Assembly: GCA_937967505.1 (NCBI GenBank)
Contig: CALCJM010000033.1
Span: forward strand, 1 to 64,000
Reading direction: 5' to 3'
Source: an uncultured Pirellulaceae bacterium
Lineage (GTDB): Bacteria > Planctomycetota > Planctomycetia > Pirellulales > Pirellulaceae
DNA length: 64,000 nt
The position numbers and the translations under genes were made by a program. The notes under the pieces are model-generated. The model did not search any database. It was not told the DNA's origin and worked only from the letters and a program-made list of their open reading frames with translations. Positions 55,301 to 59,903 of the stretch are shown here, piece by piece (position 1 is the stretch's first letter; every line of letters begins with the position of its first letter).

Positions 55301-57529
55301 TCAAGCCAAATACCCGGATGCGATTGTTTCGAAGTCGAATGGTGTGATTCCCTCATCAACGGCGAACAGGGAATCTGCCTCCTCAATCCTGTCGCATGCT
55401 TCCCCACGGGCTTGCACATGCAGCGAAAACAGATCAAACAAATTTGGTTTCGTCATGCTTTCAATCCCGGCACCGTAGTGCTGCATACCGCGCATGTTGC
55501 CTTCGATATTGACGTTGTGGCATGGCATCGACTTCAACGCCAGGTCAGCCCAAATTGCAGCCCGGCCCTTCAGATCGATCAACATCGGGATTGAGATGCG
55601 GTGGTTGGCTGCCAAATCAATCCTGTCCCGAACCGTGGCAGGCTCAAACACTTCACCCGACTGGGGCTTATCGCGGGACATCCACCCCACGTAACACTCC
55701 GGCAGGTCACAATATGGGTGGCGGGTGAATGACATCACTGAACAGACTACATAGCGAGCACCGGCCTTTCGAAGTTTATCGAGATCAATATCAATAAACT
55801 CACTGGCCCCATTGGGGGCCGATGTAATGTCACCACTGTGACAACAGCCCAGCTTCGTGGCCTTGAGATTGGTGTAAGAAATATGGTTCAGGTATCTCCA
55901 GCTGGCATCAAAGATCGTCGCCGACAGGTCAAGGTCAACGCGTCCGGTATCCTGGCTATTTACTTTGCCCTCTTTCCACCAAAGAAAAAATCGTACCACA
56001 TTGGCGTCAGGTAAAGGCAATCGCGATCCGCGCGCTACCGTCCGCAGCGACTTGCTGGCCGAGCGCCGGGAAAATGGAACGGTGAAGTTCTGCAGATCCT
56101 CCGACACAAAACACTTGCCCAACGAAGGAAGTGCGGAGAATCGCTCGACAAGTGCCGCCTTTGCCAATTCCACGACTCGTTCCGCCATTGCGGGTGCGAG
56201 CCATGATTTCGCCAGTGGAACGCGCATCAGCCTTGAAATCTGCCCTTTGGGAAACACCGTACGCATCGGTTGCAACATCGGAGTATGCTTGTGCGCACTG
56301 GCCGGTTTCATCAGCGACCGAACAGCTTTTTCGAAGAACGGTAGGGATTGCTTTTCAGGCGTGTCTTTGAGCCGTCGCGGACTCTGATCATAAGCGCGTT
56401 GTTTGAAGTGGGCGATCAACTGAAGTAAGACAGGCGTCGAAACGTCGCCGGCGACTTTCGCAAAACAGTCTAACACCCGGTCGGCTTTGTCGGGCCCCTC
56501 ACGTAATAGATGATCCAACCGCCGCGCCAGTTCGCCCGGGCGCTGACACAGTAACACCGCCGTTTTGGCCGTGTCGCCCTCACGCAGAAGCTGTTCGACT
56601 TTCGAATTGAAGGTGACCGGTTTTTCATTCCTGCGCAGTCGTTGGATTGCCGCCAACGCCAGCGGGAACTGTTTGCCATACTCACCAGGATGCAGGCGTT
56701 CAGCTAGGCGAATCCACTTGCCGCGATGGCGGTGCAGATCTTCATCAGGCCGAGTGACTTTGTCCAGCAACCCCAGCAAAACGCGGCGATGATTTCTAGA
56801 AAAGGAAACAAATCGCGTCGATGCGGCAAGGCTCGTGTCGCCGCCAGAAATTTCCGTTGCCAATCGCAGCACATCGGTCGCTGTCTTGAGGAATCGGCCA
56901 AGCAGCGGCGCGGGATTTTCGACGCGCTCCAGCAAGAACTTGCAGACTACCGATTGTATTTCTTTGAAGGGAATCGATTCAGGCAGCACTTCCTCGATGT
57001 GGTCGCGACATGCTTCCAGCAAACCTCGCAAATCACTTTGATCGGACTTCGACAGCGATGTGTTCGACGCAATCAAGCCCCGACATACACTCTGAATCGT
57101 ATTTTCATCAGCCAACTGCAGAACCTTCAAGTTCTCTGCAATTACCAGCGCGTTACGCGGCCGTTTGTTGTAGTGCGGAAGAATCCCCTCACCAATCACG
57201 TCGCCGTAATAGTGAAGAAGCGCGTTTAAATACAGCTCTGCTTCCGACGCTTCCATCACCTGAGCAGGAAAGTTGGGGTACATCGGAAGATACCTTACAT
57301 CTCCACCCACCATTTTCAACAAATGCGGCAGCAGTGATTCTGCGAGCCCAAGTAGCTCGTCGGGCGTCCACGTCTGTAGGCGTTCGATAACATCCGCAGA
57401 AAATGTGAAACCAACCGACTCCAGATTCTTGCTCAGCGCAGCGACAAACTCGGGACGCGCACTTCTGTTTTGACCGGGAACAAACACTTTCAGTGTCCGC
57501 CGCAAGACAATTCTTTGAACCGAATTCAT
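55301..57529 (-). CDS. Large helical protein with C-terminal TerD-like domain (MXAN_6230/SCO0854-like)
   Basis: 742 residues. Residues 1-500 are helical, with recognisable blocks 'LAERLHPGEYGKQFPLALAA', 'CQRPGELARRLDHLLREG', 'AGDVSTPVLLQLIAHFKQR' and 'RGSRLPLPD..VVRFFLWWKEG'. From ~545 a TerD-like beta domain follows: 'RVDLDLSATIFDASW', 'HSGDITSAP', 'SEFIDIDLDKLRKAGARYVV', 'CYVGWMSRDKPQSGEVFEPA'. This matches by memory the MXAN_6230/SCO0854 family, linked to Ter/stress systems; no RING finger is seen here. Function unproven. A permuted tRNA-like RNA gene lies directly upstream on the same strand, 25 bases from its start codon, which suggests a ribonucleoprotein (inference). Confidence 0.75.
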   Translation of the reverse strand: MNSVQRIVLRRTLKVFVPGQNRSARPEFVAALSKNLESVGFTFSADVIERLQTWTPDELLGLAESLLPHLLKMVGGDVRYLPMYPNFPAQVMEASEAELYLNALLHYYGDVIGEGILPHYNKRPRNALVIAENLKVLQLADENTIQSVCRGLIASNTSLSKSDQSDLRGLLEACRDHIEEVLPESIPFKEIQSVVCKFLLERVENPAPLLGRFLKTATDVLRLATEISGGDTSLAASTRFVSFSRNHRRVLLGLLDKVTRPDEDLHRHRGKWIRLAERLHPGEYGKQFPLALAAIQRLRRNEKPVTFNSKVEQLLREGDTAKTAVLLCQRPGELARRLDHLLREGPDKADRVLDCFAKVAGDVSTPVLLQLIAHFKQRAYDQSPRRLKDTPEKQSLPFFEKAVRSLMKPASAHKHTPMLQPMRTVFPKGQISRLMRVPLAKSWLAPAMAERVVELAKAALVERFSALPSLGKCFVSEDLQNFTVPFSRRSASKSLRTVARGSRLPLPDANVVRFFLWWKEGKVNSQDTGRVDLDLSATIFDASWRYLNHISYTNLKATKLGCCHSGDITSAPNGASEFIDIDLDKLRKAGARYVVCSVMSFTRHPYCDLPECYVGWMSRDKPQSGEVFEPATVRDRIDLAANHRISIPMLIDLKGRAAIWADLALKSMPCHNVNIEGNMRGMQHYGAGIESMTKPNLFDLFSLHVQARGEACDRIEEADSLFAVDEGITPFDFETIASGYLA

Positions 57530-57553: not shown

Positions 57554-57691
57554 AAAAAAAGTGGTGGAGATTGGGAGCGCTGAAATACCAATGCTCTGCC
57601 AACTGAGCTACCCTTTCCGGGGAAAGAGGTGGGACTCGAACCCACGACCCTTGGTTCCAGGTTTAGAAGGAAGCACTCTCATAGCCACCAC
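57554..57691 (-). ncRNA. Circularly permuted tRNA-like RNA, resembling a YrlA-type Y RNA
   Basis: Read on the minus strand: outer helix GTGGTGG, then GAGAGTGCT, a 16-base bulge side, ACCAA, GGGTC, T-arm GTGGG-TTCGAGT-CCCAC, CTCTTTC, linker CCCG, GAAAGGG, TA, D-arm GCTC-AGTTGGCA-GAGC, A, TTGGT, ATTTC, AGCGCTCCC, AATCT, CCACCAC and seven T. So the tRNA 3' half (57622-57655) precedes the 5' half (57587-57617). The acceptor halves pair over 7 bp (one G-U), the anticodon-stem halves over 5 of 5, and the outer arms over 7 of 7 plus 8 of 9. T-loop and D-loop are canonical. No second D-arm or T-arm exists on either side, so it is not two normal tRNAs. Bacterial YrlA RNAs have such tRNA-mimic domains closed by an outer stem; that match is inference. 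No anticodon can be assigned. Confidence 0.75.
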
Positions 57692-57702: not shown

Positions 57703-57803
57703 GGCGACTGGCAGTTGGGAATTTACCATCCGTTGGCGACGCTGCCAGCGTCGGAGCGAAGCTGGCAGCATCCCCAACGGCAAGCTTTCAACTGCCAATC
57801 GCC
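57703..57803 (+). repeat. Palindromic interspersed element, copy 3 of 4 (complete)
   Basis: 101 bp. Terminal arms GGCGACTGGCAGTTG and CAACTGCCAATCGCC are inverted repeats with one mismatch; the inner arms CCGTTGGCGACGCTGCCAGC and GCTGGCAGCATCCCCAACGG also pair. It begins 11 bases beyond the 5' end of the tRNA-like RNA gene. Confidence 0.93.
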
Positions 57804-58148
57804 TAAAATTTACCTTCGACACCTCACAAGCAAGCTGTACCAAACGCTGGTCAATAGACACCGTGGCGTATTATAGGTTCATCTTCGAGAGGCACAAACC
57901 GAGAAAAACCCCGGGAACCCAAAACCCAGTTGAACGACCAATTCAAGCTCACCAAATGTGCGAAGTCTTTTCTGCAAGTGGTTCCTCTGCGAAGCGATGT
58001 AAAACGATTGGATCCTCCAACCAACGAAAAAGCGGATGCAGATGGGCTCGCAAGCGCTCCATGAATTTGTGCCCGGAAATTCCCGACTGGCTTGCCGATT
58101 GGCGTCCTGTCGCGGTATCATGTTGGCGTTCTATCGACAGGGATATTC

Positions 58149-59903
58149 ATGGCCATCACCGATTCAATGCACGGAAAAATTCATCAGGGCGACTGCATCG
58201 TCGGCCTGAAGACAATCCCCGCCGGCACGGTTGATCTGGCCTTCGCCGATCCACCATTCAATATCGGATTTAAATACGACCAGTACGATGATACGCTCGA
58301 AGATGACCAGTATCTTCAGTGGTCGCACGACTGGATGACCCAGATCTTTCGTGTGCTCAAGGACAACGGCACCTTCTGGCTGGCCATCGGTGACGAATAC
58401 GCCGCCGAACTAAAAGTGGCCGCGAAAAAAATTGGCTTCCATTGCCGCAGTTGGGTGATCTGGTACTACACCTTCGGCGTCAACTGCAAGAAAAAATTCA
58501 CGCGCTCACACGCACACCTGTTTCATTTCGTGAAAGACGAAAAAGATTTCGTCTTCAATCATCTGGACATGGACCTGCGTGTGCCCTCGGCACGGCGGTT
58601 GATCTACAACGACGCCCGCGCCAATCCGATTGGCCGAATGCCGGACGATACATGGATCCTCCGCCCACAGGAACTGGTCAACGGGTTCGAACCCGACGAG
58701 GATACCTGGCATTTCCCGCGCGTCGCCGGAACCTTCAAGGAGCGCGCCGGTTTCCATGGCTGTCAGATGCCTGAACAACTGCTGGGACGCATCATCCGTA
58801 CCTGTTCGGTAGAAAACGATCTGGTCATTGATCCGTTTTCAGGTAGCTCAACCACCGTCGCGGTTGCCAAAAAGTTGGGCCGACGGTTTTTCTCATTCGA
58901 ACTGTCCGAAGAATACGTCCGCTTGGGAACAGAGCGACTGGACCGAATCTCGGTTGGCGATCCCTTGGACGGGGCAGAAGAACCCTCAATGAGTGGATTG
59001 CTGAAAAAGGAAAAACAAACTAAAAAATCGACAAAGCAAGAACACAAACAACCGGCGACTCTGTTCGCCAACGAGAACAAAATTCACGACATGATCGCCG
59101 CCGAAGAAGACGGTATCATCGAAGCGTTTGCCAACGCCAACCGTGGCTATCCGATCGATCGTCTGGTGGCAGACCCGATTTTGAACGAGGATTTCCAGTT
59201 GGCATGCGAACGGTTGTCAATTCCGGGTACGCCGGCCGAACGTAATCGGTTTTTATTTCGCGTCCGCAAAGCTGGCCGATTGAAGTCTGCGGGCGTGAAC
59301 ACGCAAACCAAAACGCGGATTGGCTGGAAGGACATTGAACCCTTTGTGTTTGCCAGCGAGATCGCGTGGCGGCAAGTCACCAACAGGTATCGCATGGGAC
59401 TGGACGAGATGTTTTGCGACCCGCGTATTGCGGCGCAGTTTGACAAAATTGCCGCTGATTTCTCACCCGGTTTCACCGCCCTGGAGTATCGCTGGGCGGC
59501 GCTGCGGATTCGCAAAGAAGGTCACAACGGGCTGAATCGGACCGGGCTCCAATCCACAAATAAATTTGGCATCTCCCAACTGAACAGGGCCGGAATCAAA
59601 GACGCGACGCCCATCGCCCTTGCGGATTTGAGTTTTGACAAAATTGAACAGGGGCCCGGTGTTTATCTGATTCGCCAAAGCGATGCGACTGCGTTATACG
59701 CAGGTGAAACCGACCAGCTGGCGTCGCGCATTTGTCGTACCTTTGAAGCAGGTCCACGCGATTTGTGGCTACAGCGTTGTGCTGATCTGGAGATCTTCAT
59801 TCTGCCGCTGGAATCGGTTGCCGACTACCGGTTCGCCCGTCAAAGCCTGCTGTTGAAATGGCACCGTCCGCAGTGGAACTACGTCGATCACCTCAAAGCT
59901 TGA
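58149..59903 (+). CDS. Beta-class DNA methyltransferase fused to a GIY-YIG-like domain
   Basis: 584 residues from the ATG at 58149, preceded by AGGG. Motif IV 'AFADPPFNIGF' (34-37 DPPF) comes before motif I 'IDPFSGSSTTVAVA' (228-235), the beta-class order of N6-adenine/N4-cytosine methyltransferases (PF01555). Middle part (~290-490) unrecognised, opening with a Lys-rich linker. The last ~80 residues, 'GPGVYLIRQSDATALYAGET' followed by 'LASRICRTF', look like a GIY-YIG fold with YAG for YIG; nuclease activity is unproven. No separate restriction enzyme or specificity gene is next to it. Could be an orphan methyltransferase, a one-protein restriction-modification system or a phage-defence enzyme. 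Confidence 0.88.
   Translation: MAITDSMHGKIHQGDCIVGLKTIPAGTVDLAFADPPFNIGFKYDQYDDTLEDDQYLQWSHDWMTQIFRVLKDNGTFWLAIGDEYAAELKVAAKKIGFHCRSWVIWYYTFGVNCKKKFTRSHAHLFHFVKDEKDFVFNHLDMDLRVPSARRLIYNDARANPIGRMPDDTWILRPQELVNGFEPDEDTWHFPRVAGTFKERAGFHGCQMPEQLLGRIIRTCSVENDLVIDPFSGSSTTVAVAKKLGRRFFSFELSEEYVRLGTERLDRISVGDPLDGAEEPSMSGLLKKEKQTKKSTKQEHKQPATLFANENKIHDMIAAEEDGIIEAFANANRGYPIDRLVADPILNEDFQLACERLSIPGTPAERNRFLFRVRKAGRLKSAGVNTQTKTRIGWKDIEPFVFASEIAWRQVTNRYRMGLDEMFCDPRIAAQFDKIAADFSPGFTALEYRWAALRIRKEGHNGLNRTGLQSTNKFGISQLNRAGIKDATPIALADLSFDKIEQGPGVYLIRQSDATALYAGETDQLASRICRTFEAGPRDLWLQRCADLEIFILPLESVADYRFARQSLLLKWHRPQWNYVDHLKA

What the first reader, a model, noticed from the sequence alone, without database searches (positions are those of the whole stretch)
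57554..57691. A circularly permuted tRNA-like RNA gene in a bacterium
Seen directly: on the minus strand a T-arm/acceptor-3' half is followed, after a 4-base CCCG linker, by an acceptor-5'/D-arm half. The split halves pair with each other: acceptor 7 bp with one G-U, anticodon-stem position 5 of 5. The outer ends form a long interrupted helix running into seven T. T- and D-loops are canonical. Established: permuted tRNA genes are known from some algae and archaea, and YrlA-type bacterial Y RNAs carry tRNA-mimic domains. Inference: this is either a Y-RNA-like tether RNA or a permuted tRNA precursor. The linker (CCC then G before G1) would allow RNase P cleavage to leave a near-complete CCA end.
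Basis: partly seen in the sequence, partly recalled or inferred. Interest (0 to 1): 0.9.

Follow-up and report, generated by a model that had tools for sequence, protein, structure and literature searches.

The report
tRNA-mimic partner RNA of Ro60-like protein
A small bacterial RNA that imitates a tRNA sits beside a poorly known gene, and its conserved base accompanies nearly every complete copy of that gene examined in bacteria and phages, pointing to an apparently undescribed RNA-protein machine that resembles the Ro60-Y RNA particle.

Summary
In detail: on the minus strand a T-arm and acceptor-3' half are joined by CCCG to an acceptor-5' and D-arm half, closed by a long outer helix and seven T. 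It is not a permuted tRNA: no anticodon loop, no CCA in the linker, no tRNA call.

The head has the YrlA (bacterial Y RNA) topology, but 40 bits is below Rfam's threshold, and the neighbour is not Ro60. The outer helix is a separate conserved module, the foot: GGCUAU, an 8-bp helix, a UUCCUUC bulge, CUUUCC. It lies beside nearly every complete copy of the downstream gene (MXAN_6230/SCO0854-like) that I examined: 80 of 80 kept named loci, the same 22 of 39 whole genomes as the gene, 12 of 14 phage/plasmid loci, 71 of 80 viral contigs; 0 of 11 TROVE loci. It covaries strongly; short forms had no Rfam match where scanned. Most copies lack the tRNA head.

The predicted protein has a TerD domain and a helical part whose two best PDB matches are both Ro60. 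I read this as a second Y-RNP-like system: foot holds protein, tRNA-mimic head recruits or decoys a tRNA-binding factor. Binding is inferred; a cis-regulatory role is the main rival.

The parts
57554..57691 (-). whole noncoding RNA: foot plus tRNA-mimic head, ending in seven T
   Evidence: R2, built with this RNA, 140.2 bits
57561..57567 (-). foot helix H1, 3' arm CCACCAC (pairs with 57691-57685)
   Evidence: H1 (6 pairs) 89.4% of cells paired in 11 RNAs, 94.4% in 75 short forms
57685..57691 (-). foot helix H1, 5' arm GTGGTGG
57681..57684 (-). conserved internal loop CTAT (opposite AATCT 57572-57568)
   Evidence: CTAT in 71 of 75 distinct short forms
57673..57680 (-). foot helix H2, 5' arm GAGAGTGC (pairs with GCGCTCCC 57580-57573; 7 of 8 here)
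   Evidence: H2 97.7% paired, 96.5%
57573..57580 (-). foot helix H2, 3' arm GCGCTCCC
57666..57672 (-). conserved bulge TTCCTTC followed by TA: signature of the foot
   Evidence: TTCCTTC in 73 of 75 distinct short forms
57651..57655 (-). anticodon-stem-like helix, 5' arm ACCAA (pairs with TTGGT 57591-57587)
   Evidence: 81.8% of cells paired, 4 of 5 pairs with changes on both sides
57587..57591 (-). anticodon-stem-like helix, 3' arm TTGGT
57629..57645 (-). T-arm, loop TTCGAGT
   Evidence: 100% of cells paired
57622..57628 (-). acceptor-like helix, first strand CTCTTTC
   Evidence: 94.8% paired, 7 of 7 pairs with changes on both sides
57618..57621 (-). linker CCCG closing the acceptor-like helix (no CCA)
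57611..57617 (-). acceptor-like helix, second strand GAAAGGG
57593..57608 (-). D-arm GCTC-AGTTGGCA-GAGC
   Evidence: 95.5% paired
55301..57529 (-). 742-aa protein, MXAN_6230/SCO0854-like: helical part with Ro60-like predicted fold (about 144-470) and TerD-like domain (about 508-684); proposed partner of the RNA
   Evidence: NF041916 488.6 bits, below its 600 cut-off; TerD fold Z 17.3, Ro60 Z 11.6 and 9.9; helical part alone Ro60 Z 10.9 and 10.4

Best explanation
The window encodes a small noncoding RNA of about 138 nt made of two modules. The foot (helix H1, internal loop CUAU against five bases, 8-bp helix H2, bulge UUCCUUC) is the docking site for the protein of the next gene, a Ro60-like helical ring fused to a TerD-type domain. 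The head is a closed, circularly permuted mimic of a tRNA (T, acceptor and D arms). As in the Ro60-Y RNA-PNPase particle, the head would recruit, gate or decoy a factor that recognises tRNA (PNPase, a tRNA-modifying enzyme or a tRNA nuclease), so the RNP acts in quality control, decay or repair of structured RNA; phage copies would serve the phage in the same trade. Shown: the RNA's structure by covariation, the constancy of the foot, its linkage to this gene in bacteria, plasmids and phages, and its absence from the TROVE loci tested. Predicted: the protein fold. Inferred: binding, the role of the head, the biological task.
For: Foot covariation on 75 distinct short forms: 94.7% of cells paired against 70.1% shuffled and 38-47% when slid; score 0.667 against 0.176 +/- 0.011. 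Head plus foot, 11 RNAs: 26 of 35 pairs with changes on both sides. Linkage: 80 of 80 kept named loci (best 80 of 523 found); 10 of 12 genomes with a family match in the phylum sample of 392; in 39 whole genomes of the order of a Brevibacillus, RNA in 22 and gene in the same 22, RNA within about 2 kb; 12 of 14 phage/plasmid loci; 71 of 80 viral contigs, all 177 hits on the gene's strand. Control: 0 of 11 TROVE loci with this foot at E<=10, though 9 of the 11 show permuted tRNA heads by pattern, 8 of them on the Ro-type foot. Fold: after six chains that match the TerD part, the two Ro60 entries are next of 970; with the helical part alone they are the best two of 948. Context: the gene lies among tRNA genes in phages RcXuper, RpAliso and Weasels2, beside or one gene from a nucleotidyltransferase in the first two; three genes lie between it and rtcR on a Variovorax plasmid. 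Known parallel: the YrlA foot holds Rsr, its tRNA-like domain binds PNPase (PMC8394870, passages; PMC7790460, passages).
Against: No binding or expression data. No sequence similarity to TROVE: hhalign probability 0.1%, no TROVE hit in Pfam even at E 10. Foldseek on the helical part gives no significant PDB match and no Ro60 in its top 50; Z of 10-11 for a helical repeat can be a common arrangement (tool note). Most feet in the named set (133 of 146) have no tRNA head, so the head cannot be the general function. 72 of 80 named loci have the RNA only upstream, as a cis element would. RtcB is not adjacent in general and the neighbours tested show no shared operon. Phages WXIN and SCTP-2 have the gene but no RNA found, and 9 of 80 viral contigs no R1 hit (R2 adds 3 of these). 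The model R2, which includes the head, also matches most TROVE loci (up to 70.7 bits). One covariation measure, the number of pairs with a change on both sides, is no higher than in shuffles for the short forms (11 against 10.5).
Confidence: 0.68

Rival explanations
1. The foot is a cis-acting leader: the protein binds hairpins in its own mRNA and controls its own synthesis (attenuation or translation); the tRNA head makes the leader respond to tRNA-binding factors. No separate RNP is needed.
For: 72 of 80 named loci have feet only upstream; the nearest one ends 11-250 nt before the start of the protein match; a T5 run follows 26 of 147 feet against 200 of 8000 background 13-mers, some directly before the gene. 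All 142 R1 hits in the named loci are on the gene's strand. In the window 24 nt separate the T7 run from the ATG.
Against: 5 of 80 named loci have feet only downstream and 3 both; about 52 of 177 hits in viral contigs start past the gene's end (my hand count); some copies in the Brevibacillus order lie almost 2 kb upstream; up to 5 copies per locus. A tRNA mimic is unusual for a leader (recalled).
Confidence: 0.2
2. It is a YrlA-type Y RNA serving a genuine Ro60 encoded elsewhere in the genome, and the neighbour is incidental.
For: Rfam YrlA match; the genome has one TROVE match on another contig.
Against: That TROVE frame has an in-frame stop and its own two Y RNAs with the Ro-type foot; the window's foot follows the SCO0854-like gene, not TROVE.
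Confidence: 0.06
3. Circularly permuted tRNA gene, cut by RNase P in the linker to make a functional tRNA.
For: Full acceptor, T and D arms; 11 of 60 distinct heads in held loci encode N-CCA after the acceptor strand (6 of 29 put with this foot, 3 of 17 with the Ro foot, 2 of 14 unclassified).
Against: No anticodon loop; the stem opens into a conserved foot; linker here is CCCG, several relatives have UUCG caps; ARAGORN finds nothing here.
Confidence: 0.02
4. Scrambled tRNA debris or the junction of tandem tRNA genes.
For: Tandem tRNAs do mimic the pattern (L198).
Against: No tRNA in the window; six helices covary across phyla.
Confidence: 0.01

Closest known systems
YrlA, bacterial Y RNA (Rfam RF02553), with Ro60/Rsr and PNPase
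   Same: Permuted tRNA-like head with T, acceptor and D arms closed by a small loop; two-helix foot made by the RNA's ends; gene beside a ring-fold candidate
   Different: Foot has another consensus (CUAU loop, UUCCUUC bulge instead of GAAUGC/GACUGC and UACAU); below Rfam's threshold; adjacent protein is not TROVE by sequence and carries TerD; most copies have no tRNA head
Ro60/Rsr protein (2nvo, 9l5y; Pfam TROVE)
   Same: Predicted helical part superposes on the helical part of both (Z 10.4 and 10.9, 248 and 244 residues)
   Different: No detectable sequence similarity; TerD-type domain where Ro60 has a von Willebrand A domain (recalled); about 140 N-terminal residues extra
MXAN_6230/SCO0854 family RING domain-containing protein (NCBIfam NF041916)
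   Same: Same family by profile over most of its length; the two members over the cut-off also have the RNA just upstream
   Different: 742 aa against 842 positions, below the curated cut-off; positions after 755 of the model not matched
TerD domain proteins (tellurite resistance, Pfam PF02342)
   Same: C-terminal domain has the TerD fold (Z 17.3 to 3ibz)
   Different: Fused to a long helical part; weak by sequence (17.7 bits, cut-off 25.3)
Circularly permuted tRNA genes of algae and archaea (recalled)
   Same: Order of halves
   Different: No anticodon, no CCA here, linker is a cap rather than a processed spacer

Membership tests
YrlA / bacterial Y RNA | permuted tRNA-like domain (T, acceptor, D arms) | tested here: met
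YrlA / bacterial Y RNA | Rfam RF02553 gathering score 69 | tested here: not met
   40.4 bits
YrlA / bacterial Y RNA | encoded near a Ro60/TROVE gene | tested here: not met
   the five neighbouring proteins scanned hold no TROVE; the only TROVE match is on another contig
YrlA / bacterial Y RNA | Ro-type foot as found at TROVE loci | tested here: not met
   different consensus; model R1 finds 0 of 11 TROVE loci
YrlA / bacterial Y RNA | binds a Ro protein and PNPase | not testable with these tools
   needs biochemistry
Ro60 / TROVE protein | Pfam TROVE by sequence | tested here: not met
   no hit at E<=10; hhalign probability 0.1%
Ro60 / TROVE protein | Ro60 helical-ring fold | tested here: inconclusive
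   best two of 948 chains for the helical part, Z 10.9 and 10.4, next 8.2 over 107 residues; Foldseek not significant
MXAN_6230/SCO0854 family (NF041916) | curated score 600 | tested here: not met
   488.6 bits, E 3.5e-146: a relative, not a full member
TerD domain | TerD fold | tested here: met
   predicted model, Z 17.3, 158 aligned, 2.7 A to 3ibz
TerD domain | Pfam gathering score 25.3 | tested here: not met
   17.7 bits
permuted tRNA gene | complete tRNA with anticodon loop and CCA or CCA-ready end | tested here: not met
tmRNA | tmRNA covariance match over its length | tested here: not met
   only 18 positions, 14.8 bits against 47

The most novel reading that the evidence does not exclude
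There is a second Y-RNP system in bacteria and phages, parallel to Ro60-Y RNA: a Ro60-like ring whose von Willebrand domain is replaced by TerD, with its own class of foot RNA, onto which tRNA-mimic heads are swapped in some lineages. The heads come from junctions of tandem tRNA genes (some keep an encoded N-CCA), and phages carry the system inside their tRNA clusters as a decoy or repair device against host tRNA nucleases.
Probability: 0.45. Interest if true: 0.93.

Novelty: new variant of a known kind. Interest (0 to 1): 0.85.

Why it matters
It gives a family of proteins known only by domain names an RNA partner to test. It ties TerD, a domain of unclear biochemistry (recalled), to RNA, and offers an RNA whose short form was not matched in Rfam 15 in the loci scanned, with clear covariation, present in cultivable Paenibacillus and Brevibacillus and in phages. 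It also makes the modular idea of Y RNAs (protein-binding foot, exchangeable effector head) testable by comparing two feet that carry the same head.

Tried and rejected
Permuted tRNA precursor and tRNA debris: rejected for this RNA as above.

RtcB as a fixed neighbour: RtcB is present in 20 of 23 gene-bearing genomes but on other contigs or far away, with one about 6 kb off in G440 (most of these are drafts). Pfam on 10 flanking proteins from 9 loci showed no shared operon; 3 of the 10 had no family. Defence models: no PADLOC hit for the protein.

Sequence kinship with TROVE: none by hhalign (low diversity, Neff 2.8) and no Ro60 among solved structures by profile. Foldseek alone does not support Ro60. 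Vertebrate Ro60 entries are not in the rows listed; that shows nothing either way.

Head-only matches of model R2 (106 of 199 genomes of the phylum have an R2 match, many head-only) are not counted as Y-like RNAs, because tandem tRNAs satisfy the pattern (L198). The first version of the pattern script found nothing because of a wrong D-arm rule; the first foot register was off by one, replaced. The pairing score used there is weak by itself (93 of 4800 random anchors reach 15): the motif and the independent searches carry the case. R1 was built from named loci and L038, R2 from named loci, the window, L033 and L038, so and the matching rows of 73 and 95 are circular; one search is partly so, since some Brevibacillus loci were in R1 and A2. 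The other loci, are independent. Related genomes and near-copy viral contigs make the counts less independent than they look.

Literature: the listings of searches of open-access PMC text showed no paper that links this protein family to an RNA; SCO0854 and MXAN_6230 give 0 papers. Key Y RNA papers were not held, so prior description in subscription journals is not excluded.

Full report
THE OBSERVATION. Reading the minus strand: outer helix GTGGTGG/CCACCAC, an anticodon-stem-like helix ACCAA/TTGGT, T-arm with loop TTCGAGT, a 7-bp acceptor-like helix with one G-U, linker CCCG, D-arm with loop AGTTGGCA, then T7. ARAGORN finds no tRNA in the window. Rfam gives YrlA at 40.4 bits, E 1.5e-6 for a 5-kb stretch, below its gathering score of 69. 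The YrlA model has the same order of helices, so the permuted tRNA is the known YrlA topology. Minimum free energy alone is unremarkable (z -1.89). The promoter scan found none for it, and the terminator scan did not list its T run, probably because the loop is too large for that scan.

THE NEIGHBOUR. The gene that starts 24 nt after the T run (55301-57529, minus) encodes 742 aa. It matches NCBIfam NF041916, MXAN_6230/SCO0854 family RING domain-containing protein, at 488.6 bits (cut-off 600) and TerD weakly (17.7 bits, cut-off 25.3). It is not TROVE: no hit at E<=10. The other neighbour, on the plus strand, is an adenine methyltransferase. A relative at 67% identity lies in a genome of the same genus (G011) and in a record named Pirellulaceae (L046); the two contigs have equal length, so I take them to be the same.

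THE FOOT IS A SEPARATE, WIDESPREAD RNA MODULE. G011 has two such RNAs upstream of its copy of the gene, and two other genomes of the phylum have them downstream (G228, G104). All 80 kept loci hold the foot near the gene: 147 feet, 72 loci upstream only, 5 downstream only, 3 both; 1 copy in 23 loci, 2 in 49, 3 in 7, 5 in 1. All 142 R1 hits in them are on the gene's strand. In most, the foot carries a short apical loop in place of the tRNA head. With a stricter score 146 feet passed, in 81 of 83 sequences (the 80 loci, the window, L033, L038): 133 short and 13 long, 11 of the long ones with the tRNA head. The consensus is H1, CTAT against five bases such as GCTTT, 8-bp H2, bulge TTCCTTC, then TA opposite TA. 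Rfam scans up to E 1 gave no match at the short feet of L031, L032, L034, L037, L039, L041, L050, L099 and L113; tRNA-headed forms match YrlA at 24-43 bits, in a few rows over the whole model.

COVARIATION. On 75 distinct short forms aligned by MAFFT, 94.7% of cells pair, against 70.1% +/- 0.8 after shuffling and 38-47% when one side is slid; covariation score 0.667 against 0.176 +/- 0.011; the bare number of pairs with a change on both sides (11) is not above shuffles (10.5). H2 has 7 of 8 and H1 4 of 6 pairs with changes on both sides; the TA/TA step does not covary. On 11 tRNA-headed RNAs 26 of 35 pairs show changes on both sides (shuffled 15.1), score 0.684 against 0.199 +/- 0.022; cells paired by helix: H1 89, H2 98, anticodon-like 82, T 100, acceptor 95, D 96%. 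The short forms were first selected by a pairing score, which inflates the percentage paired; the slide control and the searches below do not depend on that.

LINKAGE OF FOOT AND GENE. A covariance model of the short foot (R1) was used. In the phylum sample of 392 genomes 12 had a family match; R1 finds the RNA beside the gene in 10, including the two members over the family cut-off (36.4 bits each), and not in G052, where the gene is in pieces at contig ends, nor G343, whose match is 20 bits (a 16-bit hit in G052 is not counted; the window itself scores 21.6 and L033 19.7 bits because the head is an insertion in this model). None of 11 TROVE loci scored at E<=10. In 40 relatives R1 hits at E<=0.1 occur in two genomes only, the two with the full gene; G011 also has two 33-nt hits at E 0.06 elsewhere, and G013, with a C-terminal remnant of the gene, has none. 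In 12 gene-bearing genomes 21 of 22 hits lie at the gene (coordinates compared). In 39 genomes of the order of a Brevibacillus the RNA and the gene were sought separately: each in 22, the same 22, RNA within about 2 kb. In one of these (G450) the gene has five stops and the RNA is kept. Relatedness, and the presence of some of these loci in the models, make the counts less independent than they look.

PHAGES AND PLASMIDS. tblastn finds the gene in 11 phage records and 30 plasmid records. I fetched 14 loci, 8 phage and 6 plasmid: 12 have the RNA, 9 by R1 and 3 more by R2 (L201, L204, L213), not phages WXIN and SCTP-2. tRNA-headed forms occur in Rhodobacter phage RcXuper, Ruegeria phage RpAliso and Rhodococcus phage Weasels2. 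These three have tRNA genes nearby; RpAliso has a tRNA nucleotidyltransferase directly after the gene, RcXuper a nucleotidyl transferase one gene on, XacN1 a nucleotidyltransferase of unstated kind with two genes between. On a Variovorax plasmid three genes lie between the gene and rtcR. Of 95 viral contigs with the gene, 80 were kept: R1 finds the RNA in 71 at E<=0.01, and R2 adds three more; all 177 R1 hits are on the gene's strand, about 52 of them past its end (counted by hand, and some contigs are near-copies). R2 at 55 bits or more marks 17 contigs as tRNA-headed, 14 of them confirmed by the pattern. TROVE proteins with a tRNA-like partner are already known in some jumbo phages (PMC7824862, passages read).

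TWO FEET, ONE HEAD. Among 11 TROVE loci (10 fetched plus the own genome's), 9 show a permuted tRNA head by pattern, not L139 and L145 (L145 has R2 hits up to 38.5 bits). Eight of the nine have feet with GAATGC or GACTGC on the 5' side and TCGTC, TTGTC or CGTCA on the 3' side; L138 has a third kind. R2 itself matches most TROVE loci, up to 70.7 bits, because the head is shared; at the SCO0854-like loci it scores 98-146 bits, on rows used to build it. So the same head rides on at least two feet, and each foot follows its own protein. In a quick tree of 57 proteins the presence of the tRNA head needs 5 changes, at least 3 forced by well-supported branches, against a shuffled mean of 9.3 (0 of 500 as low). 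The careful tree was not finished, and several phage branches are long.

THE PROTEIN FOLD. AlphaFold2 with 38 sequences gives mean pLDDT 83, pTM 0.79. The C-terminal part is TerD (3ibz, Z 17.3). After six chains that match this part, the next best are Ro60 of Thermus phage phiLo (Z 11.6, 308 aligned) and Rsr of Deinococcus (Z 9.9, 309), then Z 6.0. Residues 1-470 folded alone (pLDDT 87) give the same two first: Z 10.9 (244 aligned, 3.7 A) and 10.4 (248, 4.9 A), then 8.2 over 107 residues. I had noted this idea, from the RNA and the look of the protein, before any fold search. But the tool warns that helical repeats can reach Z 13 by arrangement alone, Foldseek gives no significant match, and sequence profiles show no kinship with TROVE. 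In the viral library the three significant matches are phage proteins; one has the length of SCTP-2's member of this family (844 aa) and one is named tellurium resistant like.

MECHANISM. Established for YrlA: the basal stem holds Rsr, the tRNA-like domain binds PNPase and is modified by tRNA enzymes (PMC8394870, passages read); the Rsr-Y RNA operon of Salmonella answers to damaged tRNAs, and its authors suggest that the tRNA-like domain could act as a competitive inhibitor of an anticodon nuclease (PMC7790460, passages read). By analogy the foot docks on the helical ring of the SCO0854-like protein and the head, where present, brings in a tRNA-binding factor. In most named loci the short apical loop replaces it, so the basic complex would be protein plus foot. 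The position just upstream of the gene and the terminator-like T runs in a minority (26 of 147) allow an added role in autoregulation.

LIMITS. No expression, binding or genetic data. The own genome is a draft (88.9% complete).

Noticed in passing
window 57705-57806: A long nested inverted repeat (TTGGCAGTTG...CAACTGCCAG) lies between the RNA and the methyltransferase gene; Rfam gives only weak microRNA hits there, below their thresholds.
   Followed up: no
L044 7031-7766 (G000:C65): The genome's only TROVE match is weak and has an in-frame stop; two Y RNAs of the Ro-foot type lie next to it.
   Followed up: partly
L138 3396-3537, L187 3078-3217 (genome G104): tRNA-headed RNAs with a third kind of foot (GGTCAAGA...AGTTxCTTCGA); L138 sits beside a divergent TROVE protein, L187 has no TROVE or SCO0854-like gene in the stretch.
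   Followed up: partly
linkers of 60 distinct heads in held loci: 11 of 60 heads encode N-CCA right after the acceptor strand, against about 1 in 64 by chance: 6 of 29 that the script put with this foot (all six phage or viral), 3 of 17 Ro type, 2 of 14 unclassified. The 29 include two of the third foot kind (L127, L187) and one doubtful head (L246). Suggests descent from real tRNA genes.
   Followed up: partly
L198 1685-1796: Two tandem copies of one tRNA gene satisfy the permuted-tRNA pattern at their junction: a possible source of such heads and a trap for head-only searches.
   Followed up: partly
L201, L203, L204, L207, L213: The SCO0854-like gene lies among phage tRNA genes or near a nucleotidyltransferase, and three genes from rtcR on a Variovorax plasmid.
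   Followed up: partly
G450:C37 39060-41162: A genome of the Brevibacillus order with five stops in the gene still keeps the RNA.
   Followed up: no
window 58092-59903: CcrM-like adenine methyltransferase with a C-terminal stretch that weakly matches UvrC and DEDD-exonuclease models.
   Followed up: no
L186 2050-2187 (G104:C937): A tRNA-headed RNA with this foot (99.5 bits) and no partner gene in the 6 kb fetched of a 6.9-kb contig.
   Followed up: partly
G011:C79 36290-36322 and 36839-36871: Two identical-scoring 33-nt matches to the foot model (E 0.06) away from the gene.
   Followed up: no
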